IMG/VR virus record: IMGVR_UViG_3300047546_001659
Span: 54,012-118,011 of that record
Reading direction: 5' to 3' (one strand)
DNA from: a virus
DNA: 64,000 bases
In this document: in pieces, positions 19,372 to 63,136 of the stretch
Position numbering within the stretch: position 1 is the stretch's first letter
Layout: each line of letters opens with the position of its first letter
Program-made: the position numbers and the translations under genes
The notes under the pieces: generated by a model
Databases searched by the model: none
The model's input: only the letters and a program-made list of their open reading frames with translations
Told to the model about the DNA's origin: nothing

Positions 19372-21727
19372 AAAAGAAACAGGCGAAGATATTCTCCGAG
19401 CTATTATGGAAAAAGGTGGTAAGGGTGGTGGTAGAGCTCAGCAAGCAGCTGCAGAGGCTCTTAATGATGCTGCTGAAAGTATTAAAGAAAATACCAGACA
19501 ACAGGCAAAAATTGGTGAAACCTTAGGTAACGTTTTTAATAATTTTAAAAATTCATTTTCCAGTGCTGGTGGTGGAGGCAGAGGTACGGGTGACGGAACA
19601 GGAGGCCTTGGTGGCCTTGGGGGCGGCGGAAGAAGAAATAATGTTCCAAATATATTATTAGATATCCTAAATGTAAATAGAAGTATCTTAAAATTTACTC
19701 ATTCTAATAATGATGTTCTTTATGATATTCTTGACGCTATTCGTGGCAATGAAAGAAGTAAAATTGAAGAACGTAGAGAAAGATCCACAAGAACTCAACC
19801 TACTGAAGGTACAGGTGCAGGAATAGGCAAAACTTTAACTGGTGCTGGTAATCTCTTTGGTGGTATGGGTAATTTATTGAGTGGATTGGGTGGCGGACTA
19901 GGTAAACTACTTGGTGGTGCAGGCATTGCAGCTTTTCTTTTATCAGAAGCTGATGCAGAAAAAATCAAAAAAAATATTGAAACCCTCTTATCAATTGGTG
20001 AGGGATATGAAAGCAAGCTTGATTTCCTAAAAGAAGGTGGAACTCTTGCTTTAATGTTATATGGAATAGGAACCGGTCTTTCTACATTTGCTATTGGACA
20101 ATTTGCAAATGTTATTACTCAATGGACTACTGGATTTTTAGGTAAAGAAAATTGGGCTGAAACAGTAAAAGATAATGTTGCTGATCTTTTAGAAATAGCT
20201 AATTTACCAAATAGTAATGTAGGTAATGTTGCTTGGCTTACAACGGCTTTGGTTGGTATAGGAACAGGGTTAGCTGTTTTTGGAATTGGTAAAGGCGTTG
20301 AGGGTGGGATTGAAGGTATAGTAAAGGGAATAGATTTCTTTACAAAAGATCAACCATTTGCCCAGAGGTTAAAAGATGAACTTGGAACTTTACTTTCAAT
20401 AGCAGATTTACCACACCAAAATGACGCAGGATGGTTAGCAGGTGCTTTGACTAAAATAGGACTTGGTTTAAGTGTGTTTGCATTAGGCAAAGGTTTAGAA
20501 GGTATTGCATATGCAGGTCAAGAAATAGTTGATTTCTTCACAGGACAACAACCCTTTGCACAAAGAATATATGATGAAGTAAAAACTCTATTATCAATTG
20601 CGGATATTCCTCATGCATCAGATGATGTAACATGGTTTGCTAATATGGCAGCAGGCATCACAGCCGGTTTGGGAGTATTTGCATTAGGAAAAGGGTTAGA
20701 AGGTGGCGTTAATGCTATAACTAGAATTGTTGATTTCTTCGCAGGTCAACAACCTTTTGCTGATAGAATTTATAATGAAGTAAAAACTTTATTATCAATT
20801 GCTGATATTCCTCACGCTTCTGAAAATGTAAATTGGTTTGCAGATGCAATGGCTGGTATAACTGCAGGACTTGGAGTGTTTGCATTAGGTAAGGGTTTAG
20901 AAGGCGGGGTCAATGCAGTAACCAAGATTATTGACTTTTTTACTGGAGATAAACCTTTTGCTCAGAGAATATATGATGAGGTTTCAAAATTATTATCAAT
21001 TACTAAAATTGACGCAGATGGCAAATCTTTCTTCTTAACGATGTCTGATATAGCTGCTGGTCTTGCAGCCTTTACTGTATCAGACTTTGCAAGTTCATTA
21101 GTTAATGTCGGAACTAGTATTTTAAATTTTATATCCGGAAAAAGTAGCCCGTTTGATAAGATTAAAGAATTAGCTAATGATGCTGATAAGTTAGAAAAAG
21201 GTGCCAATGCTTTAGAGAAAATTGCAAATGCATTGTCAACATTTTCTAATATTAAAACCGGTAATTTAGGTGATATTGATTTTGAAGGTATGGCAAAAAA
21301 TCTAGGTCAAGCCATACCATTATTAAATGCTCTCGCAAATGGTGGAACTTTATCTGCAGGTGGTTTATTCAGTTGGCTTAAATCAGATTTAGATTTTGGA
21401 AAAGGTATTCTTGATCCAAATCTAAAACTTGATCAGATGGCATCTGCAATTAGTAAGATTAACTACGTATTAGGTAGAACAACTGATATAACACCTGTTC
21501 AAGGCAATGCTCAAAACGTAAATGCAGCAACTAGACAAAACGCTGTTGATGGTGAAAGTCAAGGTAATAACATCATAGTTGTACCACCAGCAAATGGAAC
21601 TTCAAACGCTTCACGTGAACCACCTATGGTTCCTAGAAGTTCAGGGGCAGTTCAGACCGCCCCTGTTCCATCTTTATTTGATCGTCATATGTACGATAGT
21701 GCTTACTTTGGTGCTGGACACCCTTAA
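19364..21727 (+). CDS. Tail tape-measure candidate (gp29 position) built from six repeats
   Basis: 787 residues. The N-terminus is Ala/Lys-rich and helical, followed by a Gly-rich stretch (residues about 68-90) and 'VNRSILKFTHSNNDVLYDIL'. Residues 208-609 consist of six units of 66-68 residues, each starting 'LLSIADIPHAS'-like and containing 'GLGVFALGKGLEG' and 'DFF.G.QPFAQRIYDEV'. The place directly after the frameshifting gp26-like gene is where tape measures lie in most tailed phages. No peptidase or lysozyme domain is visible. Its TAA overlaps the gp32 stop from the opposite strand. Confidence 0.65.
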   Translation: MAKKETGEDILRAIMEKGGKGGGRAQQAAAEALNDAAESIKENTRQQAKIGETLGNVFNNFKNSFSSAGGGGRGTGDGTGGLGGLGGGGRRNNVPNILLDILNVNRSILKFTHSNNDVLYDILDAIRGNERSKIEERRERSTRTQPTEGTGAGIGKTLTGAGNLFGGMGNLLSGLGGGLGKLLGGAGIAAFLLSEADAEKIKKNIETLLSIGEGYESKLDFLKEGGTLALMLYGIGTGLSTFAIGQFANVITQWTTGFLGKENWAETVKDNVADLLEIANLPNSNVGNVAWLTTALVGIGTGLAVFGIGKGVEGGIEGIVKGIDFFTKDQPFAQRLKDELGTLLSIADLPHQNDAGWLAGALTKIGLGLSVFALGKGLEGIAYAGQEIVDFFTGQQPFAQRIYDEVKTLLSIADIPHASDDVTWFANMAAGITAGLGVFALGKGLEGGVNAITRIVDFFAGQQPFADRIYNEVKTLLSIADIPHASENVNWFADAMAGITAGLGVFALGKGLEGGVNAVTKIIDFFTGDKPFAQRIYDEVSKLLSITKIDADGKSFFLTMSDIAAGLAAFTVSDFASSLVNVGTSILNFISGKSSPFDKIKELANDADKLEKGANALEKIANALSTFSNIKTGNLGDIDFEGMAKNLGQAIPLLNALANGGTLSAGGLFSWLKSDLDFGKGILDPNLKLDQMASAISKINYVLGRTTDITPVQGNAQNVNAATRQNAVDGESQGNNIIVVPPANGTSNASREPPMVPRSSGAVQTAPVPSLFDRHMYDSAYFGAGHP
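19985..21190 (+). repeat. Six tandem ~67-codon repeats in the tape-measure candidate
   Basis: Unit lengths by eye are 67, 68, 66, 67, 67 and 67 residues, each beginning LL(S/E)I. Units 3-5 are most alike ('ALGKGLEG', 'QQPFAQRIYDEV'); units 1 and 6 are diverged but keep length and the starting LLSI. Constant unit size over diverged sequence suggests selection on length. Confidence 0.8.
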
Positions 21728-22650
21728 TCAGAAGCTAACTTCTTAAAGAAGCTAAGATCCTCATCGTCTTCATCCCAAGGTGCTGAAGACTCTTGCTTAG
21801 CTGCTGGGATAGAAGGTGCAGGAGCTGCACGTTGAGGTGTTGGGAAAGCTTCATCTTCATCATCAAGAGAAGGAGCCATACGCTGAGGTGAATCAGTGAG
21901 TGTTCCGAGAGCCTTCTCAAGACGCATCTTCAATTCTTCATATGACTTGAAGTGCTTTGCATCAAGAAGTTCTTGAAGTGAATGTTGCTTACCCCAGATA
22001 GCTTTAATCTGCTCATCATCATTTGCAATAGAAGATGGTGAATCAAATTCAGACTTATCATAGTTACGATAGCCTTCTACCTGACGAATCTTCAACTTAA
22101 AGTTTGCTCCATCCCAGAAATCAAAAGGATTAACAGCCTTCTCATCTTGGAATTGTGGATGCATAGCTTCGTTGATCTTATCAAAGATCTTTTTACCATA
22201 CTTAAACAAGAATACCTTGCCTTCGTTTTCTGGACGAGTAGGATCCTTAATAACAAGAATGTTAGAGAAGTATGAAAGGCGACGCTTTTGCTTGCGTACA
22301 ATTTCCTTATTTGATTCAATACCAGAGTTCCAGAGTTTTGTGTTCATCTCTGATACTGGATCTGGTTTATTGAATGTGGTTAGGCTTTTTTCGATATACC
22401 AACCACCAGGACCTTGGAACCCATGGTCCCAAATGCGTACGAACGGCATGTCTTCACCAGCTGGGGCGGGAAGAAAACGAATGATCGCATAGCCATTGCC
22501 GGCTTTGTCGACATCTGGTTTCCAGAAGCGATCGTCGTTGTTTGAACCGTCTTGTTGGGAAACTGTAGAATTGAGCTTGTTGAGCTCGGATGTGAGTTTG
22601 TCAAAGTTAGACTTACGATTTTGTTTAAGTGCTTCGAAATTAATAGTCAT
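21724..22650 (-). CDS. gp32: Single-stranded DNA-binding protein gp32, lacking the zinc cysteines
   Basis: 308 residues. 'FEALKQNRKSNFDKLTSELN' is the basic N-terminal cooperativity region. 'FWKPDVDKAGNGYAIIRFLP', 'PFVRIWDHGFQGPGGWYIEKS' and 'KLWNSG' form the OB core. The C-terminus is acidic ('PWDEDDEDLSFFKKLASD'), the partner-binding tail. T4 gp32 binds zinc with a His and three Cys; here there is no Cys at all and the usual 'CPVCE' reads 'DPVSE'. It coats ssDNA in replication and recombination. Gene order 33-59-32 is conserved from T4. Confidence 0.95.
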   Translation of the reverse strand: MTINFEALKQNRKSNFDKLTSELNKLNSTVSQQDGSNNDDRFWKPDVDKAGNGYAIIRFLPAPAGEDMPFVRIWDHGFQGPGGWYIEKSLTTFNKPDPVSEMNTKLWNSGIESNKEIVRKQKRRLSYFSNILVIKDPTRPENEGKVFLFKYGKKIFDKINEAMHPQFQDEKAVNPFDFWDGANFKLKIRQVEGYRNYDKSEFDSPSSIANDDEQIKAIWGKQHSLQELLDAKHFKSYEELKMRLEKALGTLTDSPQRMAPSLDDEDEAFPTPQRAAPAPSIPAAKQESSAPWDEDDEDLSFFKKLASD

Positions 22651-22704: not shown

Positions 22705-23280
22705 TCACGAGAATTTATTTCTCAAGATCCCACAATATTTATCTTTATTATACTCCATAAAAGGGTATAATTTTTTACAGTTCATGGCAATTTGAGGCCA
22801 TAGAACTGGGTCATTTATCTGCTTGTTCCAACTACCAAAGAATCGTACACAGTCTTGAATAATAATAAAGGATTCTTTGGTAATCTTTTTACGAACAAGC
22901 AAATTCAGTAGATAAGGATACCCACCATCGTCAGGTACCTTAAAATTCTCATCAAAATTTTCTAATAGATGATCTATATCTGATTCAAACATATATTGAA
23001 GTGTTTGCTTACGCCTCAAATAATCATTATATTTAAATTGATGATCTGTATTAAACATATCACCTATCCAAAGTTTTTGATTCTCTGAAAGATTAGCAAC
23101 CAGAAATGTCTTAGGATCTTCGTGTTTAGACAACTTATAAAACATATATTTGTCTTTGCGTGTTTCAAAAGAGTGTTCTGAAACGTTTGTTTTACCATTA
23201 TACTTTACAAAATCATATGATGGTGAAGTAAAATGATTTTTCAAAGCTACAAATAATTTATAGGCTTCAAAAGGTGTCAT
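22705..23280 (-). CDS. gp59: Replicative helicase loader gp59
   Basis: 191 residues. 'MTPFEAYKLFVALKNHFTSP', 'YDFVKYNGKTNVSE' and 'DKYMFYKLSKHEDPKTFLVANL' match gp59 ('ALK.HF', 'YD..KYNGKT', 'R.D.FFF.KL'). gp59 loads gp41 helicase onto gp32-coated DNA at forks and recombination intermediates. The start overlaps the gp33 stop by 4 bases and gp32 follows, as in T4. Confidence 0.88.
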   Translation of the reverse strand: MTPFEAYKLFVALKNHFTSPSYDFVKYNGKTNVSEHSFETRKDKYMFYKLSKHEDPKTFLVANLSENQKLWIGDMFNTDHQFKYNDYLRRKQTLQYMFESDIDHLLENFDENFKVPDDGGYPYLLNLLVRKKITKESFIIIQDCVRFFGSWNKQINDPVLWPQIAMNCKKLYPFMEYNKDKYCGILRNKFS

Positions 23281-23510
23281 ATAGGTAATCTACCCGATCT
23301 TCTTACAAGGTTAAGATTTTCAGCTTCTATTTGAATTTTTGCTTTTAATACTGTACTCTGTTTAATTAGTGAAGCAGCAGTTTCAACTTCAATGTTATTT
23401 GACTCACAGTAATGCATTACAGCGTCAAAATATGTCAAACCTTTAACTGAAGCTAACCTGTCAATTTCTTTTACAAAGTCAGCAGAGGATTTTATATTAC
23501 TTATTTTCAT
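23277..23510 (-). CDS. gp33: Late transcription coactivator gp33
   Basis: 77 residues. 'VKGLTYFDAVMHYCESNNIEVE' (family 'Y.DAV.HYCE..N.EIE'), 'AASLIKQST' and the end 'LNLVRRSGRLPI' fit gp33 of T4-like marine phages. gp33 links RNA polymerase to the sliding clamp for late promoters, which agrees with the (N)ATAAATA elements in this window. Its start overlaps the ketosynthase gene end by 14 bases, so the late coactivator is tied to the acyl-chemistry pair in one transcript. Confidence 0.85.
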   Translation of the reverse strand: MKISNIKSSADFVKEIDRLASVKGLTYFDAVMHYCESNNIEVETAASLIKQSTVLKAKIQIEAENLNLVRRSGRLPI

Positions 23511-24666
23511 CTATATTTCTTTTAAATGCAAGTGTTATGTTTGTGCCACCAAAACCAAATGAATTATTGAGAACTATATTTTGTTCAGTTTCATATGGAA
23601 CATTTGGTAGGAAAATTTCTTCTGATATGCTTTCGTCTTTTTCATCTAAATTCCAATTTGGAATTATTACACTATTTTCAAGAACAGTAATACAGGCTAA
23701 TGATTCAATAGCACCGGCTGCACCAAATAAATGTCCGTGCAATCCTTTAGTAGAGCTGATGGGAATATTCGATGTATATTTACCAAAAATATTTTCTATG
23801 CTTTTTAACTCTACAAGATCACCAATTGGTGTACCAGTTCCATGAGCATTAATATAAGTTACATCTTGAATATCAAAATCCTTTAAAGCAAGAGACATAC
23901 ATTTAACCTGGCCTTCAGTGTTTGGTTTAGTTACAGATTCAGAACCATTTGATACACCATATCCAACTATTTCACAATATATTTTTGCATTTCTTGCAAT
24001 AGCTTTATCGTAATTTTCTAGAATGAATATTACTGAACCTTCTGACATTGTAATACCATTTCTATTTTTAGAAAAGGGTTTACAATCACTACTTAGCGCA
24101 TTCATAGCTTTCCAATAGGCAAATTGCAATTCATTAATACAAGCCTCAGAACCACCAGCTGCTAGACAATCATATTCACCATAAGCAATCTTCTTATAAG
24201 CTTCACCTATAGCTGTAGAGGAAGATGAACAAGCTGTCGAATAAGTAAAAGCGGGACCTTTTAAACCATCTTTAAGAGCTATAAAGTTAGCACCCATATT
24301 AACAACAGAACAAATTAATGCAGAGGGTTTAACTTTTCCTTTTGCAAATAAAGATTTATATGACTCTTCATAAGCTATAGCACCACCACCATATCCAACA
24401 CCTAATAATATTCCCTCTGGATAATTGGAACTATCATTAATAGCATCTTTATAAGATAACCAAGCAAGCCTTGTAAACCTATCTGTAATGTTTAGATCAA
24501 ACCTATCAAAATGACTATCAACATCCTCAGAAACAACATAAGAAGATGAATCAAACATATCTTGTTTAGATCCAAATACACCTCTTATAAATGAATTTTT
24601 TACTGTGGGGTAATCATTGCCAATTGGCGTTCTGCAACCTATACCTGTAATTGCAACTCTGTTCAT
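23497..24666 (-). CDS. 3-oxoacyl-ACP synthase (KAS II / FabF-like ketosynthase)
   Basis: 389 residues, near the usual 410. All catalytic residues are present: Cys146 in 'STACSSSS', His275 in 'NAHGTGTPIGD', Lys307 in 'SSTKG' and His312 in 'GHLFGAAGAIES'. 'SFGFGGTNITLAF' closes the fold. The family condenses malonyl-ACP with an acyl thioester. It starts inside the ACP stop (ATGA, 4-base overlap), so the pair is co-translated, and it overlaps gp33 downstream. No other chain-building enzymes are in the window, so it may use host FabD/FabG, or work as a specialised ketosynthase. Function of the product is unknown. Confidence 0.93.
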   Translation of the reverse strand: MNRVAITGIGCRTPIGNDYPTVKNSFIRGVFGSKQDMFDSSSYVVSEDVDSHFDRFDLNITDRFTRLAWLSYKDAINDSSNYPEGILLGVGYGGGAIAYEESYKSLFAKGKVKPSALICSVVNMGANFIALKDGLKGPAFTYSTACSSSSTAIGEAYKKIAYGEYDCLAAGGSEACINELQFAYWKAMNALSSDCKPFSKNRNGITMSEGSVIFILENYDKAIARNAKIYCEIVGYGVSNGSESVTKPNTEGQVKCMSLALKDFDIQDVTYINAHGTGTPIGDLVELKSIENIFGKYTSNIPISSTKGLHGHLFGAAGAIESLACITVLENSVIIPNWNLDEKDESISEEIFLPNVPYETEQNIVLNNSFGFGGTNITLAFKRNIDENK

Positions 24667-24920
24667 TTATGATCCATATTATCATAAATGTAATCAACTA
24701 ATCCATTCAATGTTGTTGCAATGTCTTCTATTGTAATTGAATTTATTTCAAAAACATCTTCAAGTTCAAAAAGAATATTAATGACTTCCATAGAATCTAA
24801 TTTTTCATTTAATTCTTGAAGTCTGTTGAGAGGGAAATCACTATCTAAAACATTTATGTTAATATTATAATTTTTATTAAAGTAGGTAGCAATGGTTTCA
24901 CGGATTTCATCTTTTGTCAT
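24663..24920 (-). CDS. Acyl carrier protein
   Basis: 85 residues from ATG 24920. GAGG at 24926-24929 is 5 bases before this ATG; the adjacent ATG at 24923 is too close, and a further upstream start would run into the tmRNA. 'LNEKLDSMEVINILFELEDVF' has the ACP phosphopantetheine motif D-S-M (Ser43) and the following acidic helix II. The family carries acyl chains on a 4'-phosphopantetheine arm. The gene is followed by the ketosynthase with a 4-base overlap and is preceded by the tmRNA hairpin, so it may be made from the tmRNA promoter by read-through. Confidence 0.88.
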   Translation of the reverse strand: MTKDEIRETIATYFNKNYNININVLDSDFPLNRLQELNEKLDSMEVINILFELEDVFEINSITIEDIATTLNGLVDYIYDNMDHK

Positions 24921-24941
24921 CATAACCTCATAATAAATGGT

Positions 24942-25226
24942 GGAGAGATTCTGTTTCCAAGCTCTCTCCGGGCTCATATCAAGCAGCGAGTGCTAGATTA
25001 GGTGCAAAGTTATCGTTTGCATTTAGTTTTGTCGCTTCAGTCTCGATCTTGTCTTTACTACACCTGTCGATCCTATTTCGCCCCCATCAAAGATACAGCA
25101 AAGAAGATTTATTTACTGCTGACTCTAATCTTCTATCCAGCATCACTTCTGTATCTATGGTGGAGGCGGAGGGTATCGCACCCTCGTCCAGTATGTCTAT
25201 TCTACTAGATGTCAACAACATCAGCA
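24942..25226 (-). ncRNA. ssrA: Circularly permuted two-piece tmRNA (ssrA)
   Basis: On the minus strand the acceptor piece comes first and ends CGCCTCC-A-CCA (CCA at 25160-25158). It has a T-arm GAGGG/CCCTC (25185-25169) with loop TGCGATA. An intervening segment (25157-25086) folds into nested 8-bp stems AGATACAG/CTGTATCT and AGAAGATT/AATCTTCT. The coding piece starts GGGGGCG at 25085, pairing with CGCCTCC and giving a G3-U70 pair, the alanine identity mark. The tag frame 25020-24979 reads ANDNFAPNLALAA then TGA. A GGAGAGA/TCTCTCC hairpin (24942-24969) may close the coding piece or end transcription. It frees stalled ribosomes and tags the product for ClpXP. Exact ends are estimates. Confidence 0.95.
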
Positions 25227-25230
25227 ATTA

Positions 25231-25261
25231 TATTTATAGCATATAATTAATTAAATGTCAA
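25231..25261 (-). promoter_or_regulatory. tmRNA promoter, sigma70 and late elements combined
   Basis: Minus strand: TTGACA (25261-25256), a 17-base spacer, then TATAAA (25238-25233), an almost ideal sigma70 promoter. The -10 extends to TATAAATA (25238-25231), which is also the T4 late consensus. Start of RNA is expected near 25226. The tmRNA could thus be read both by unmodified host polymerase early and by the gp33-dependent late enzyme. Confidence 0.8.
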
Positions 25262-25269
25262 CTGTAATT

Positions 25270-25971
25270 TTATACACCATTTCTGGTTCTATATACTTCA
25301 CGCCAATGCATCAAATCTTTAACATAATAATCTCGACGATCCTCAAATACCTGAGGAGGTTCATTGTCAACCGAAATAAGAATAACAATTCTACTTACGG
25401 GAATATTGAATCTTTCTTCGTACATAATAGCATAGGCAGAAGCTTGACAGAAGTAATTTAAAATATGATCTCTGTTTTTTAATTTACGAGCTGTTTTAAA
25501 ATCTATAATTGAAAGTTTACCTTTCCATTCAGCAACACAATCAACAGTGCCAGCCATCTTTAAATAATCAGAATAAAGTCTTACTTCTTGTAAATGTATG
25601 TTATCAATATTTCTATCCAACTCAGGTTTAAGTTCATTGAAATTAATGACATCATTAAAATTATATTTGCTTACATCTATCTCATTATTGTTTAGATAGT
25701 CTTCACACAACTGATGTATACGTGTTCCACGAGTAGCAGCTTGTGTGCTTATTTTATTGGCTTCTTCATTACCAACTCTTTTACGCCAAGCTCGAATCGC
25801 ATCTTCACTCATTAATCCAGTTACAGTAGTCACAGAGGGATATAATTCACCGGAAGGAGTTTTATAATACCTTCCGGTGTCTGTATTGACTTGTTCTAAT
25901 ACATCCTCATTAAGGGTCTTTTTGAGATGAGTGAAGTGCTTGCGTTGGGCTAAAATGTCCTTGAGTAGCAT
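25270..25971 (-). CDS. PD-(D/E)XK exonuclease (RecB/Cas4-like)
   Basis: 233 residues. 'SVTTVTGLMSED', 'TRGTRIHQLCEDYL', 'MAGTVDCVAEW', 'LSIIDFKTARK' and 'YFCQASAYAIMYEE' are the PDDEXK_1 motifs: H in helix 1, D of 'GTVD', D-x-K in 'DFKT', then Q..AYA. It probably degrades or processes DNA ends. The N-terminal 20 residues overlap the PhoH gene end by 62 bases; no better start is seen. Its end abuts the tmRNA promoter. Confidence 0.8.
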   Translation of the reverse strand: MLLKDILAQRKHFTHLKKTLNEDVLEQVNTDTGRYYKTPSGELYPSVTTVTGLMSEDAIRAWRKRVGNEEANKISTQAATRGTRIHQLCEDYLNNNEIDVSKYNFNDVINFNELKPELDRNIDNIHLQEVRLYSDYLKMAGTVDCVAEWKGKLSIIDFKTARKLKNRDHILNYFCQASAYAIMYEERFNIPVSRIVILISVDNEPPQVFEDRRDYYVKDLMHWREVYRTRNGV

Positions 25972-29185: not shown

Positions 29186-29199
29186 TCTGCCGTGTTAGA

Positions 29200-29237
29200 G
29201 GGGCATACACATTTATTTATGGTTTTGTGTATGCCCC
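29200..29237 (-). promoter_or_regulatory. 11-bp hairpin with a late-promoter element in its loop
   Basis: GGGGCATACAC (29200-29210) and GTGTATGCCCC (29227-29237) are perfectly complementary with a 16-base loop. The minus strand of the loop holds CATAAATA (29221-29214). There is no T-tract on the minus strand, so it is not a standard terminator. It lies between the stop at 29244 and the next ATG at 29185. Confidence 0.6.
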
Positions 29238-29243
29238 ATAATA

Positions 29244-32714: not shown

Positions 32715-32729
32715 GATCCCATTTTTTTT
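32698..32729 (+). terminator. Rho-independent terminator of plus-strand small operon
   Basis: AATGGGATCT (32699-32708), loop AAGTA, AGATCCCATT (32714-32723), followed by a T-run to 32729. It also lies 3' of the opposing glycosyltransferase gene, so it may stop both transcripts. Confidence 0.85.
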
Positions 32730-33657
32730 ATACTAAAGAATTGAGCAGAGCTTCCCACTCTTGCTTTCTTCTATCCCATCCATAAAAATAATCAAAATAT
32801 TGTTTTTGAAACTCAAGGTAGGCATCAGGCTGACCTTGAGTGTTTCTTATAGTATTAATAGCATGCTCTAGTGTATGTGCAAATTGTACAGCATGAGCAT
32901 TTTTATTTTCATTCCATGGATACATCATTGCAAAATTAGCACAGGTCTCTGGAAGAGCGGCATAGTTAGGGCATACAACCAAATTCATTGCTGACATAGC
33001 CTCGATTACTGAGAGGCAGCTCGTCTCTGGCCAAATGCTGGGGTAAGCATAGATATGTGATTTCTTAAGAGCCTCTCTAACCTCTTCATTAGGTACAGCA
33101 CCATGATAGGTTATCTGAGGATGCGTTTTACATCTTTCAAATATTGGTTTGTAAGGTTCATCTTGAATACTCCAACCATAAATGCTAAAAGATGAATATA
33201 CATCAAGATGAATATCTTTATGTTTGTTGGCTAATTCAATAAAAACAGGAATTAATATCTCTAATCCACGATGTGGGGTTGTATGATATATTAACCGAAT
33301 TGTTCCATCAAACGGTTTAGTTTCTATCTCTATTGGGTGTATTGCATTTTTTATAACAATAGCTTCACTATAAGGTACGTTGGTTACCAAATTATATAGA
33401 TTCATTTGATAATCAGAAACACAAACAATCTTATCAAATCGTTTACGTGAATTTGGATCTTTCAAATGTTCTGATTCAGTATCAAATGGTAGATCATGAA
33501 GCCAGAGAATATGCTTCTTACCTTCTTGCAACTCTCTAACTCTAGAAGGTATGATTTGAAATTTATCTAATAAATCAGCAGGCAAGGAACTATGAAGACG
33601 TTCCTGCATCAACTCGGTGCCACCCCGAGCGTTTCTATTTAATTCATTCTTTTCCAT
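32728..33657 (-). CDS. Group 1 (GT4-like) glycosyltransferase
   Basis: 309 residues. 'HILWLHDLPFD', 'FDKIVCVSDYQMNLYN', 'RLIYHTTPHRGLEILIPVF' and 'YPSIWPETSCLSVIEAMSAM' are GT-B features, with the E-x7-E motif in the last. 'GGTELM' near the N-terminus may hold the nucleotide-sugar loop. Somewhat short for the family. Probably glycosylates DNA, virion or host surface; nothing here says which. It lacks an upstream promoter of the early family. Confidence 0.85.
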   Translation of the reverse strand: MEKNELNRNARGGTELMQERLHSSLPADLLDKFQIIPSRVRELQEGKKHILWLHDLPFDTESEHLKDPNSRKRFDKIVCVSDYQMNLYNLVTNVPYSEAIVIKNAIHPIEIETKPFDGTIRLIYHTTPHRGLEILIPVFIELANKHKDIHLDVYSSFSIYGWSIQDEPYKPIFERCKTHPQITYHGAVPNEEVREALKKSHIYAYPSIWPETSCLSVIEAMSAMNLVVCPNYAALPETCANFAMMYPWNENKNAHAVQFAHTLEHAINTIRNTQGQPDAYLEFQKQYFDYFYGWDRRKQEWEALLNSLV

Positions 33658-36061: not shown

Positions 36062-36221
36062 ATTTTTTATCCCTTAGTTGATTGATGATTATAATTCTCT
36101 GATCATCAGTATATATGCGCCATTTTTGAATCTGTTCTAAAGTCCTGCCACATCCTGTACAGACGTTTGTGGCAGGATCAATTTTACATAATTTAACACA
36201 GGGTGTTAGAATAACTCGCAT
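36039..36221 (-). CDS. DUF1289 small Cys-rich protein
   Basis: 60 residues from ATG 36221. 'TPCVKLCKIDPATNVCTGCG' then 'RTLEQIQKWRIYTDDQR' is the DUF1289 signature (C-x3-C-x8-C-x2-C), common in alpha- and gammaproteobacteria. Likely binds metal or an iron-sulphur cluster. It overlaps the ribonucleotide reductase end by 16 bases. Confidence 0.85.
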   Translation of the reverse strand: MRVILTPCVKLCKIDPATNVCTGCGRTLEQIQKWRIYTDDQRIIIINQLRDKKYGLGCTN

Positions 36222-38419
36222 CCACCACCTACACAAGCAGCAGATCCAATAGTGTCAACATCAATATATTTAACTTCTTTCAATTCATCTTCCCACTTAA
36301 TATCCTGAATTGTTTGCTGAATCTTTTCCCACTTGTGAAGTAGGTAAACATCCTTAAAGCAGTATTCAGCCTTCTTGATATCACCGTTGAAGTAATTAGT
36401 AGCAAACTTTTTAAATCTACGAATCCAATCTTTCTTGAGAGTATTCTGATGATTATCTGCTGTAAGATCTTCACCATAACCATTAGCAGTCATACAGGCC
36501 AACCAAAGATTATCGAAACATTTCAAAGCTTCAACAATAAGACCAGATGCCATAATTGCACCTGCACCGTACTTTTCAGTAAGCTGAGCTGCATTTAATA
36601 CTTGAGTGTTTGGTGCTTGGAAATAATCTTTATCGCCTGTCATTGGTAGAAACGAAATACCAGCAAAATAATCACGGTTATTAAATACGTAATCCTCAAT
36701 AGCATCCCAGTCGTCAACAATGACAGTGTTAGAAACATTATGGCGTATGCCGGGATGAGCGCATCTTTCAATATTTGTTCCAGCATTGACCCAGAACTCC
36801 TGTGCCTTCTTAATAAGATCTAAATGCTTAATACCAATAAGATCATCCTTGAAGATTGATCCTTCCTTAGCAACTACTGGGAAAGAAACAACATAATCAG
36901 TCTTTCCAGATGACCAAGCAGATTCTTCAACCATATTAGGATTGATTCTCTTGATAAGCTTTGCAACTTCAGTATCTTTGTTCAGCTGAATGTTGCGAAT
37001 ATACATTGGGGAGTGATCAGCATGAATACCAGAAGCTGTCATCAATAGGACAGAGGCATTCCCGGAAGGCTTAACACAAGTAGTACGAGCAGCAGGGTTA
37101 ATCCCAAGTAGTCCAGCCACTTCTCTATTTGTTTCTTTAACAATTTCAGCTCCTCTTTGTAGAATCTTTTCATCAAACAATGTCTTTGGATTATTCATCC
37201 AACCTGTTACAGAAACACCAAGAAGTGCTTCTCTATCAAAGATAGCCTTTGATGCAGGTGAAAGAAATTTAAAGTCAGTATAACCGGCTTGCAATGTTCC
37301 TAGGATAGAAGCGGCACGACAAGCCTTGTAGAATGTTTCTTCGTTATCACACATACCACCATTGATCTCAGTTAGGTTGCATCCCTGCCATCCTGATTGA
37401 CCATCAATTTGCGGATACATACCAATTTCAACACATGGATTGGTTGTAATATCTTTATCATCAACAAAGAAAAAACCTGGCTCACCAAATTGCTTAATTG
37501 ATGTCATAAGGTTTGCAAATTGTTCTTTTGTTATTTCATTACGAACAATAACAGCACTATTATTACTGCGACCACGTTGTGGATTATCAATATACCAATT
37601 TCCAGTCTTAGCTCCTGCCATCTCATCGTCTGTAGCGCTGAAAAGACAAATAGTAGCTGAGCGGCGAACACCACCAGCCAATACAGCATCAGCAGCGTGC
37701 ATAACAATATCATATACATGGATTGGCCTCAATGTTGCTGACTTCTCATTAAGAGTAAGCCCGGTTAAAATATATTCAATACGATCAAGAGAACGACGAA
37801 GAGGTTCTGGACCTGGTGCCTTAAACCCTCCAGAGATCTTTGCTCCTTTTGGACGAATGGCTGAAAGATCAAAAGCTACCTTACGACCAGCATATTCAGG
37901 ATACTTACCACCATTTTCAAAGAAAGAAGACATAAGAACATCAAGAGCTGTTGCCCAACCCTCAACAGAATCTTCTACTGTATGAAGCTTAGGTGCTTTT
38001 GTACGATGAATGATTTTAGGAAGCTTACCAACATGATGTGATTGTACAGAGAATCCAGCACCTGCACCACAAAGAAGAATGTAAAAAATTTCACCAAAGA
38101 ATTCTGGACGATCAGCATAGGATGATGTGCAATTATACATTCTCATTTGATGCTTGAATAGTTGTTCACCACCAAACTGAAGAGCACGTTGTGCACCAAG
38201 AACAAGTTTTTGTTTATATGCAGCTGCAGCTTCATCCATATAAGCCATCAATTTTGACGACATCTTATCAGCATAAAAACCGGAATGCATTTTCATAACA
38301 CGGTTCACAGCTTCTGACCATGTTTCGTATCTACCTTCATCCTCAATAAATCTTGCATAGCCTTCATAGAATTTGGCGTCTGAAAGTAGTTTCTTAGTAT
38401 CTTTATAAGTTGCAGCCAT
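36206..38419 (-). CDS. nrdJ: Class II (B12-dependent) ribonucleotide reductase, monomeric type
   Basis: 737 residues, as Lactobacillus RTPR. 'MYNCTSSYAD' and 'GCNLTEIN' give the redox Cys pair, 'NPCVEIG' the thiyl-radical Cys with C-x-E, and 'CVGGGCELF' the C-terminal shuttle Cys. 'LLCGAGAGFSVQSHHVGKLP' and 'AGGVRRSATICLFSATDDEM' are RTPR blocks. It makes dNTPs without oxygen or iron but needs adenosylcobalamin from the host. Found in phages of alphaproteobacteria. Together with glutaredoxin and ThyX it supplies DNA precursors. Confidence 0.95.
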   Translation of the reverse strand: MAATYKDTKKLLSDAKFYEGYARFIEDEGRYETWSEAVNRVMKMHSGFYADKMSSKLMAYMDEAAAAYKQKLVLGAQRALQFGGEQLFKHQMRMYNCTSSYADRPEFFGEIFYILLCGAGAGFSVQSHHVGKLPKIIHRTKAPKLHTVEDSVEGWATALDVLMSSFFENGGKYPEYAGRKVAFDLSAIRPKGAKISGGFKAPGPEPLRRSLDRIEYILTGLTLNEKSATLRPIHVYDIVMHAADAVLAGGVRRSATICLFSATDDEMAGAKTGNWYIDNPQRGRSNNSAVIVRNEITKEQFANLMTSIKQFGEPGFFFVDDKDITTNPCVEIGMYPQIDGQSGWQGCNLTEINGGMCDNEETFYKACRAASILGTLQAGYTDFKFLSPASKAIFDREALLGVSVTGWMNNPKTLFDEKILQRGAEIVKETNREVAGLLGINPAARTTCVKPSGNASVLLMTASGIHADHSPMYIRNIQLNKDTEVAKLIKRINPNMVEESAWSSGKTDYVVSFPVVAKEGSIFKDDLIGIKHLDLIKKAQEFWVNAGTNIERCAHPGIRHNVSNTVIVDDWDAIEDYVFNNRDYFAGISFLPMTGDKDYFQAPNTQVLNAAQLTEKYGAGAIMASGLIVEALKCFDNLWLACMTANGYGEDLTADNHQNTLKKDWIRRFKKFATNYFNGDIKKAEYCFKDVYLLHKWEKIQQTIQDIKWEDELKEVKYIDVDTIGSAACVGGGCELF

Positions 38420-54391: not shown

Positions 54392-55315
54392 TCAATTAAT
54401 TTGTGACAAAATCTTCTTTACTTCAGCTTTTTGGGCACTTGTAAGAGGAATATAGTCCAATGCCTCGGCATCTTTGTCATGGTTTAAGCCATAATCAAAG
54501 AACTTCTTTGCAATTGCAACAGCTGCAGCATCATCGTTTTGCTTGTGCATTACGATATATGAAGTAGCAACCATTGGCCAAGTTGTCTGAAATGCCTTAA
54601 GACCTGGTGATACTTTCTTACCATCTGTTCCAATCATATCAGCAACTTGTAGATTGTTTTGCTTAGCAAATGCATACTCAACATAACCAATTGAACCGTT
54701 AGTTTGGTAAACATTATTTGAAACACCATCGTTTCCTTTACCACCAATTGTGTTACCAGCCCACTCTACAGTTGAACCAAAACCATAGTTCTTCTTCCAA
54801 TCAGCATTTGCTTCTGAGAGAAACTTTGTAAAGTTCCAAGTTGTACCTGAACCGTCTGAACGACGAATCTTAATGATGCCAAGATCAGGAAGCTTTGCAC
54901 CTGGATTGATTTCTGCAATTTCTTTATCGTTCCATTTAGTAATTTTACCTGAATAAATCTTTGCTAAGATGTCAGCAGTAAGTGTAAGATGTTCTACATC
55001 TTTAAGATTAAAGATAGGAACGATACCACCAACAATCATAGGAAACTGTACTTGACCTTTCTTTTCAAGGTCTTCTGGCTTTACTGGAATATCAGTTGCA
55101 CCAAATATTACTGTCTTTGCATCAATCTGCTTGATACCTGCACCTGAACCAACTCCCTGATAATTTACAGCGTTGTTAGTTTCTTTCTTAAAGCTATCTG
55201 CCCACTTTACATAAATTGGTTGTGGAAAAGTAGCACCTGCACCATTAACTTCACCTGCAAAGGCTGAAGTAGCGATAAACATAGATCCGATTACGGCAAG
55301 AATGTTCTTTAACAT
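54392..55315 (-). CDS. pstS: Periplasmic phosphate-binding protein PstS
   Basis: 307 residues. Signal peptide MLKNILAVIGSMFIATSAFA, then 'GAGATFPQPIYVKWADSF', 'VNYQGVGSGAGIKQI', 'FGATDIPV', 'IRRSDGSGTTWNFTKFL' and 'GNDGVSNNV', the phosphate-binding loops of PstS. It feeds the host PstCAB transporter in the periplasm. pstS is a known auxiliary gene in marine T4-like phages. AGGAG lies before the ATG, and a candidate Pho box and promoter lie at 55362-55395. Confidence 0.96.
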   Translation of the reverse strand: MLKNILAVIGSMFIATSAFAGEVNGAGATFPQPIYVKWADSFKKETNNAVNYQGVGSGAGIKQIDAKTVIFGATDIPVKPEDLEKKGQVQFPMIVGGIVPIFNLKDVEHLTLTADILAKIYSGKITKWNDKEIAEINPGAKLPDLGIIKIRRSDGSGTTWNFTKFLSEANADWKKNYGFGSTVEWAGNTIGGKGNDGVSNNVYQTNGSIGYVEYAFAKQNNLQVADMIGTDGKKVSPGLKAFQTTWPMVATSYIVMHKQNDDAAAVAIAKKFFDYGLNHDKDAEALDYIPLTSAQKAEVKKILSQIN

Positions 55316-62101: not shown

Positions 62102-63136
62102 TTATGTAACGAGCCAATCTGGTCGACTCAAAGTCCAATCAACAACTTGTTTAATTCGTTCAGTCAATTCAATTTTTGGTTCCCAGCCCATTGCCTTCAT
62201 TCTCTCACCACTAAGAGCATATCTAAGATCATGACCTGGTCGAGATGAATGGAAGTCCACCATCTCATATTTTAATTCTTTACCCTGACAATCAGCAATA
62301 ATTTGAGCTAGTTGTAGATTATTTATTTCTTGTTTTCCAACGATATTAAACTTAGGGCATTTAACACCGTTAGTTATTTCACTATAATTTAAATTATTAG
62401 TATGAGCATTGTTTAACAAAAACAAAATAGCATCAGCAACATCTACTGCATGAATATAATGTCTGCTTCCTGGAATAGTTTTTGATGCATCAGAATGAAC
62501 TGTAATTGTTTGTCCGTCTCTGACCTTCTTGATACACATAGGAATATATTTTTCTGGATGTTGTCTTTCACCAAATACGTTCATTGTATGTGTAATAATG
62601 ATAGGAAGACCGTATGTGTTATGATATGCAACTGCTAACTCCTCACCACCAGCCTTTGTTGCTGAGTATGGATTAGTTGAATTATAACGATCATATTCGT
62701 CATAGTTAACACCAGGAGGTGCAGGACCAAACACTTCATCGGTTGAGAAGTAAATAAACTTCTCAAGTGTACCATTACAACTACGAGCATATTCTAGTAT
62801 ATTACATGTTGCCACAACATTGTCAAGAACAAACTCCATGGGATAATCAATAGACCTATCGACATGACTACCAGCGGCCAGATGAAGAATAGTATCCACT
62901 GGACCAATACGAGAAGCAGTAAGTGGTGTAATAGCTGCCTTAAGGTCATGATAAACAACCTTCACTCTGTGTTTGTTAGGATTATCTTTAATTAAGTCGT
63001 GAAGACGGTTTAGATTACCAGAGAAATCTAACCGGTCAAGACTAATAACATTCCAATCTGTATTATTAAGAAGATAGTCAATAACGTGATGTGCAATAAA
63101 TCCTGCACCACCTGTAACTAGAACATTCTTTGACAT
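62102..63136 (-). CDS. NAD-dependent sugar-nucleotide dehydratase/epimerase (RmlB-like)
   Basis: 344 residues, extended SDR. 'VLVTGGAGFIAHHVIDYLL' binds NAD, 'FSTDEVFGPA' and 'YSATKAGGEELAVAYHNTYG' hold Thr/Asp and the Y-x3-K pair, as in dTDP-glucose 4,6-dehydratase ('STDEVYG'). It probably makes a modified sugar for the nearby transferases. The exact substrate cannot be told. Confidence 0.88.
   Translation of the reverse strand: MSKNVLVTGGAGFIAHHVIDYLLNNTDWNVISLDRLDFSGNLNRLHDLIKDNPNKHRVKVVYHDLKAAITPLTASRIGPVDTILHLAAGSHVDRSIDYPMEFVLDNVVATCNILEYARSCNGTLEKFIYFSTDEVFGPAPPGVNYDEYDRYNSTNPYSATKAGGEELAVAYHNTYGLPIIITHTMNVFGERQHPEKYIPMCIKKVRDGQTITVHSDASKTIPGSRHYIHAVDVADAILFLLNNAHTNNLNYSEITNGVKCPKFNIVGKQEINNLQLAQIIADCQGKELKYEMVDFHSSRPGHDLRYALSGERMKAMGWEPKIELTERIKQVVDWTLSRPDWLVT

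What the first reader, a model, noticed from the sequence alone, without database searches (positions are those of the whole stretch)
23497..24920. Ketosynthase and acyl carrier protein pair between gp33 and tmRNA
Both proteins have intact active residues (Cys146/His275/Lys307/His312; Ser43) and overlap by ATGA. They sit in the conserved 33-59-32 transcription and replication cassette, where nothing like it is expected in T4. No malonyl transferase or reductase is nearby. The pair could redirect host fatty-acid synthesis, change membrane lipids, or make a small acyl product.
Basis: partly seen in the sequence, partly recalled or inferred. Interest (0 to 1): 0.75.

Follow-up and report, generated by a model that had tools for sequence, protein, structure and literature searches.

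The report
Phage's private fatty-acid-building enzyme pair
A T4-like virus related to phages of the ocean bacterium SAR11 carries, in the middle of its replication genes, a matched fatty-acid carrier protein and chain-extending enzyme of the kind bacteria use to make special lipids (the NodF-NodE kind), and its relatives add their own carrier-activating enzyme and a fatty-acid desaturase, which suggests that these viruses make the infected cell build a non-standard fatty chain.

Summary
Window 23497-24666 (-) encodes a 389-aa ketosynthase (KAS) and 24663-24920 (-) an 85-aa acyl carrier protein (ACP). They overlap by ATGA and lie between an alpha-type tmRNA and gp33-gp59-gp32. The KAS catalytic residues are intact. 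The ACP sequence match is weak, but its predicted fold is an ACP with Ser43 opening helix II. The pair is conserved in five phage genotypes, always between tmRNA and gp33 (KAS 71-76% identical, dN/dS about 0.1-0.17), so it is not a passing host gene.

The KAS is not a captured housekeeping FabF. It groups (100/99) with specialised alphaproteobacterial KASs that each follow a dedicated ACP, including Sinorhizobium NodE (downstream of NodF) and KASs of ACP-KAS-LpxD operons. All three genotypes whose upstream region is held, apart from the window, also encode their own AcpS. One has a desaturase directly after KAS. The window record lacks AcpS, desaturase, FabZ and the reductases.

Best reading: a NodFE-like private ACP-KAS pair that uses host malonyl and reducing enzymes to build a special acyl chain; product and acceptor are unknown. 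fabF and a desaturase in freshwater pelagimyophages were noted in one line in 2020. The ACP/AcpS context, NodE-type placement and two unrelated phage KAS systems appear undescribed in the papers I could search.

The parts
23497..24666 (-). Beta-ketoacyl-ACP synthase (KAS), 389 aa, NodE-like clade; Cys146, His275, Lys307, His312 intact
24663..24920 (-). Acyl carrier protein, 85 aa, phosphopantetheine-site Ser43 (L-D-S-M-E); ATGA overlap with KAS
24939..25259 (-). Alphaproteobacterial-type permuted tmRNA, tag ANDNFAPNLALAA; 5' boundary of the slot that holds the pair; same place in HTVC008M
23277..23510 (-). gp33-like late-transcription coactivator; starts inside the 3' end of KAS (14-base overlap)
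22705..23280 (-). gp59-like helicase loader
21724..22650 (-). gp32-like single-strand DNA-binding protein (by position and by homologues at the same place in L003-L006; not searched against a family library)
25270..25971 (-). Exonuclease (PD-(D/E)XK), upstream of tmRNA
29186..29243 (-). Gap where L002, L004 and L006 carry acpS; the window has no AcpS here, nor elsewhere in the 118-kb record

Best explanation
The two genes encode a dedicated carrier-protein/ketosynthase pair that works like NodF-NodE. Inferred mechanism: (1) the phage ACP is converted to holo-ACP at Ser43 by AcpS, which relatives encode themselves and which in the window phage would be the host's or lies in the unsequenced part; (2) host FabD loads malonyl onto it; (3) the phage KAS condenses an acyl primer with malonyl-ACP; (4) host FabG, FabZ and FabI/K reduce the product, so that a phage-chosen acyl chain accumulates on a private carrier, in one genotype beside a desaturase; (5) an acyltransferase, probably the host's, moves the chain to a lipid or cell-surface acceptor. 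Shown: both genes with intact active sites, ACP fold by prediction, fixed synteny, purifying selection, specialised rather than housekeeping KAS ancestry, own AcpS in relatives. Not shown: steps 1-5, chain length, acceptor, and benefit to the phage.
For: KAS groups with NodE and with alphaproteobacterial KASs at 100/99 support (99/95, 100/98). The AU test rejects placing it with FabF (p 0.008). In that clade an ACP ORF lies directly upstream of KAS in the seven regions read (L178-L184) and NodF lies directly upstream of NodE: the same order as in the phage. Six of those seven regions were read for their other neighbours, and in five of them (L178-L181, L183) an LpxD-like acyltransferase is next door; L183 passes the curated LpxD cut-off. 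Shared with the clade and not with FabF: ACSS/ACAS at the active Cys, Trp at FabF position 203, and a gap after 'ALSSD'. KAS, ACP and tmRNA are syntenic in five genotypes. dN 0.19-0.23 against dS 1.2-1.8. AcpS homologues exceed the curated acpS cut-off (71-75 against 59.8 bits) and keep the GxDxxxxxR and KEAxxKA motifs. A desaturase directly follows KAS in L004/L005.
Against: The NodE grouping rests on a long phage stem (1.95 changes per site) and on bacterial sequences drawn from best hits in Alphaproteobacteria; identity to NodE (35%) is no higher than to FabF (37%). The ACP sequence is divergent (31-54% between window and relatives) and its similarity to the bacterial partner ACPs is barely above that to AcpP (17 against 12.7 bits). 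The window record itself has no AcpS, desaturase or acyltransferase partner. No expression or activity data.
Confidence: 0.6

Rival explanations
1. A plain FabF-type auxiliary metabolic gene: KAS and ACP simply raise the flux of ordinary membrane fatty acids, or shift chain length and unsaturation, during infection, feeding the normal phospholipid pathway.
For: KAS matches FabF models best among named families (E 1e-95). Desaturase beside KAS in L004/L005. Earlier authors read phage fabF and desaturase as lipid biosynthesis (PMC7029224).
Against: The score is far below the FabF equivalog cut-off (321 against 494 bits). The tree and AU test reject FabF ancestry. A private divergent ACP with its own AcpS is unnecessary for merely boosting host FAS. 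Tyr at the FabF I108 gate position in all phage copies is unlike the FabFs sampled, nearly all Ile.
Confidence: 0.2
2. The pair makes an acyl donor for a surface or secreted molecule (lipid A/LPS acyl chain, acylated sugar, signal) that changes the cell envelope, for example to block superinfection.
For: Nearest bacterial relatives sit in ACP-KAS-LpxD-like operons. AcpXL and NodF are the known dedicated ACPs for lipid A and Nod-factor acyl chains (PMC9386255, PMC11901934).
Against: No LpxD-like acyltransferase in the phage sequences tested. The acceptor is unknown. This is a special case of the best explanation rather than excluded by it.
Confidence: 0.25
3. A short-chain or polyketide-like acyl product, or an acyl group used on phage protein or DNA, rather than a membrane-type fatty chain.
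For: Tyr92 occupies the position of FabF Ile108; from general knowledge, a Phe there restricts FabF to short chains. Other phages embed an ACP domain in a ~325-aa protein with no lipid-enzyme neighbours.
Against: The pocket could not be modelled (AlphaFold KAS model failed, pLDDT 36). The desaturase in L004/L005 points to a long chain. No modification enzyme was identified.
Confidence: 0.12
4. Passenger genes captured recently from the host, without function in the phage.
For: KAS is a host-type enzyme family; HTVC008M lacks it.
Against: Five genotypes at 71-76% identity with dN/dS about 0.1-0.17; fixed slot; GC3 0.15, as AT-rich as neighbouring phage genes or more so; no bacterial sequence above ~42% identity in the 385 alphaproteobacterial genomes searched.
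Confidence: 0.03

Closest known systems
NodF-NodE of rhizobia (dedicated ACP + KAS for Nod-factor acyl chains)
   Same: Two-gene unit, ACP directly upstream of KAS; KAS in the same supported clade; no other FAS enzyme in the unit itself
   Different: Carried by a phage with AcpS and a desaturase in relatives; no NodA-like acyltransferase seen; KAS only 35% identical to NodE; Tyr in place of Leu at the FabF 108 position
[quoted passage not shown]
   Same: Dedicated ACP with dedicated KAS, other FAS steps supplied by the housekeeping pathway (literature)
   Different: Phage has one KAS and no FabZ or LpxXL; FabF1XL/F2XL were not placed in the tree here
Alphaproteobacterial ACP-KAS-LpxD-like operons (L178-L181, L183)
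   Same: Nearest bacterial KAS relatives; ACP adjacent upstream; shared ACSS/ACAS, Trp203 and gap features
   Different: Phage lacks the LpxD-like gene; bacterial function not established here
fabF and stearoyl-CoA desaturase genes noted in freshwater pelagimyophages (PMC7029224)
   Same: Same phage group by gene content; L004/L005 have exactly fabF + desaturase and look like that group
   Different: That paper's main text does not mention ACP, AcpS, KAS type or mechanism (term search)
fabG-acpP-fabF in predicted roseobacter prophages (PMC8224337)
   Same: ACP and KAS in predicted phage sequences
   Different: Those have the E. coli-type fabG-acpP-fabF order in predicted prophages; the present phages are T4-like and lack fabG

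Membership tests
Elongating beta-ketoacyl-ACP synthase superfamily (KAS I/II-type) | Cys-His-His triad plus Lys, GFGG motif, N- and C-terminal KAS domains | tested here: met
   PF00109 and PF02801 full length; Cys146, His275, Lys307, His312 and NSFGFGG present and invariant
Housekeeping FabF (KAS II) | Reaches FabF equivalog cut-off and groups with FabF | tested here: not met
   321 against 493.75 bits; tree excludes it from FabF, AU p 0.008
NodE-like specialised KAS clade | Groups with NodE and ACP-paired KASs apart from FabF/FabB | tested here: met
   100/99; long phage stem is a caveat; shared ACSS, Trp203 and gap
NodFE pair | Dedicated ACP encoded directly upstream of KAS | tested here: met
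   ATGA overlap in window, adjacent in L002-L006; NodF-NodE adjacent
NodFE pair | Makes polyunsaturated acyl chains for a lipochitooligosaccharide via NodA | not testable with these tools
   needs biochemistry; no NodA-like gene was identified
Acyl carrier protein | Four-helix fold with phosphopantetheine Ser at start of helix II | tested here: met
   AlphaFold pLDDT 86, helix 43-56 starts at Ser43; best Foldseek matches are carrier proteins
Acyl carrier protein | Carries 4'-phosphopantetheine | not testable with these tools
   needs mass spectrometry or beta-alanine labelling
AcpS (relatives only) | Curated holo-ACP synthase cut-off and catalytic motifs | tested here: met
   TIGR00516 71-75 bits against 59.8; motifs invariant
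AcpXL lipid A VLCFA cluster | FabF1XL/F2XL and LpxXL partners | tested here: inconclusive
   no LpxD-like homologue in the phage sequences tested; LpxXL and FabFXL not tested

The most novel reading that the evidence does not exclude
Several unrelated T4-like and other tailed-phage lineages have each assembled a private, carrier-protein-based fatty-acid or lipid synthesis branch (own ACP, own ketosynthase, own AcpS, desaturases and, depending on lineage, FabZ, a FabI-like or a FabG-like reductase) that runs apart from the host's AcpP and makes a phage-specific acyl product; in one lineage the carrier domain is built into a larger phage protein.
Probability: 0.35. Interest if true: 0.82.

Novelty: new variant of a known kind. 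Interest (0 to 1): 0.6.

Why it matters
Phage auxiliary genes for lipids are usually single desaturases or fabF hits. A conserved, private ACP-KAS pair with its own carrier-activating enzyme would mean that phages related to those of the most abundant marine bacteria do not merely boost host fatty-acid synthesis but redirect it to a chosen product, as rhizobia do with NodFE. That makes a concrete, testable prediction (a new acyl chain in infected cells) and bears on membrane remodelling, superinfection exclusion and the lipids released by lysis.

Tried and rejected
Recent capture of host FabF: rejected by tree, AU test, selection and composition. Decaying passenger: rejected by dN/dS and synteny. 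Relatives in cultured phages: tblastn of KAS in the INPHARED records found only 31-39% identical hits in Listeria, Staphylococcus, Acinetobacter, E. coli and similar 'phage' records, several annotated as host fab genes, which look like co-assembled bacterial DNA; ACP found none. Desaturase search found Mosig EXVC030M, which has a desaturase but no KAS. Genome-contig scan with KAS: no relative. KAS structure: AlphaFold failed on a 6-row alignment (pLDDT 36), so the Tyr92 pocket idea is a sequence inference only. LpxD-like partner in phages: none. PF05118 hydroxylase (LpxO/OlsC type): none in the window-type records, present in the third-lineage phages. Promoter scan: 16 sites against 19.6 expected, no signal.

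Full report
WHAT IS THERE. The window is bases 54012-118011 of a 118,011-base IMG/VR virus record, a T4-like phage: its terminase is nearest those of S-PM2 and Melnitz, 56-57%, and its exonuclease shares a DNA stretch with pelagiphage HTVC008M. On the minus strand the order is exonuclease - permuted alpha-type tmRNA (24939-25259) - ACP (24663-24920) - KAS (23497-24666) - gp33 - gp59 - gp32. ACP and KAS overlap by ATGA, and the gp33 start lies inside the 3' end of KAS. The ACP is below Pfam's threshold, but its AlphaFold model is an ACP with Ser43 at the start of helix II, and its homologue in L003 passes PF00550.

CONSERVATION. Scans of IMG/VR found the pair in L001 (identical, probably the same virus), L002, L003, L004/L005 (the same genotype twice) and L006. 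In all, the ACP lies between tmRNA and KAS, and KAS precedes gp33. HTVC008M has the tmRNA at the same place, followed by two small unrelated ORFs before gp33, so the pair fills a variable slot. KAS dN is 0.19-0.23 against dS 1.2-1.8 in window comparisons, similar to the exonuclease; the ACP evolves faster but keeps D42-S43. GC3 of KAS is 0.15, as low as or lower than its neighbours: long residence in an AT-rich phage genome.

PARTNERS. L002, L004 and L006 encode an AcpS-family protein further upstream, starting in an ATGA overlap with the preceding gene; all three exceed the curated acpS cut-off. L011 is another contig with this gene. Of the four genotypes whose DNA covers that place, only the window lacks it. 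L004/L005 have a fatty-acid desaturase between KAS and gp33, and L002/L006 a 2OG-Fe(II) oxygenase after gp33. No desaturase, FabZ, FabG, FabI or AcpS was found in the window record; since it is a fragment, absence is not proof.

ANCESTRY OF THE KAS. The query was searched in 385 alphaproteobacterial genomes; the best matches are only about 40% identical. Trees with E. coli FabF and FabB, and with S. meliloti NodE added, place the phage KAS with a clade of secondary KASs at 100/98 and 100/99. Holding it with FabF is rejected (AU p 0.008; the group was chosen after seeing the tree, so this is somewhat optimistic). Clade members share ACSS or ACAS at the active Cys, Trp at FabF position 203 and a gap after 'ALSSD'. 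In the seven neighbourhoods read, the KAS follows an ACP gene directly. Six of these were read for other neighbours, and in five (L178-L181, L183) an LpxD-like hexapeptide acyltransferase is adjacent, one above the curated LpxD cut-off. NodF likewise precedes NodE. Caveats: long phage stem, bacterial sample from best hits in one class, FabFXL proteins not included.

MECHANISM. A dedicated ACP and a dedicated KAS are how rhizobia build special acyl chains with otherwise housekeeping enzymes (NodF, AcpXL: PMC9386255, PMC11901934). The same logic fits here: holo-ACP formation by AcpS, malonyl loading by host FabD, condensation by the phage KAS, reduction by host FabG/FabZ/FabI, delivery by an acyltransferase not yet found. 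Only the genes, residues, fold, selection, synteny and ancestry are shown; every biochemical step is inferred. All phage copies have Tyr where FabF has Ile108; a bulky residue there is known, from general knowledge, to shorten FabF's chain range, but the structure could not be modelled.

WIDER PICTURE. Searching with the phage AcpS turned up two further phage KAS lineages, very distant from this one and from each other (23-25% in the alignment). L014/L015/L021/L023: FabZ-ACP-KAS, in most with AcpS, several desaturases and a second ACP. L017 type, 19 loci: in members with that DNA, a FabI-like reductase, AcpS and desaturase near KAS, with an ACP domain inside a ~325-aa protein; in the freshwater members no ACP or AcpS was detected. 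So carrier-protein-based acyl chemistry recurs in aquatic phages.

NOVELTY. PMC7029224 notes fabF and stearoyl-CoA desaturase in freshwater pelagimyophages in one sentence, and PMC8224337 notes fabG-acpP-fabF in predicted roseobacter prophages. I found no description of a phage ACP-KAS-AcpS system or of NodE-type ancestry, within an open-access library only.

Noticed in passing
L014 4452-10910; L015 179-11605; L021; L023: A second, unrelated phage KAS lineage: FabZ-ACP-KAS operon with, in most contigs, AcpS, desaturases and a second ACP; L014/L015 also have a large radical-SAM-like ORF (by eye), and L014 Rieske-like and asparagine-synthase-like ORFs (by eye). It looks like a phage-borne biosynthetic cluster.
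   Followed up: partly
L017 7608-14005 and L024-L042; ACP domain in L135-L137: A third KAS lineage in T4-like phages with FabI-like reductase, AcpS and desaturase near KAS in members that hold that DNA; the only ACP domain (DIDSLDAIEL) is embedded in a ~325-aa phage protein near a conserved phage family (phrog_7595).
   Followed up: partly
window 24939-25259; L186 7104-7462: Alpha-type permuted tmRNA is fixed between exonuclease and gp33 in these phages and in HTVC008M; tags differ (ANDNFAPNLALAA, AKTASNDNVPYSAMKVAA, ANFNEYALAA).
   Followed up: partly
L178-L184: Alphaproteobacterial ACP-KAS operons, five of six read with an LpxD-like acyltransferase beside them; the function of this specialised acyl unit is not established here.
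   Followed up: partly
window 54392-55315 (-): PstS-like phosphate-binding protein, 78% identical to a gene on an 8.4-kb contig filed as a Gammaproteobacteria MAG; next best about 50%. That contig may itself be phage.
   Followed up: no
window 36206-38419, 32728-33657, 62102-63136 (-): Ribonucleotide-reductase-like protein (by eye), glycosyltransferase group 1 (Pfam) and NAD-dependent sugar epimerase-like protein (by eye).
   Followed up: no
MT647606.1 50696-69250 (L123): Pelagiphage Mosig EXVC030M has a desaturase beside Asp_Arg_Hydrox proteins, several MoaA-like proteins, a carbamoyltransferase and an N-acetyltransferase: another possible biosynthetic cluster, without KAS.
   Followed up: no
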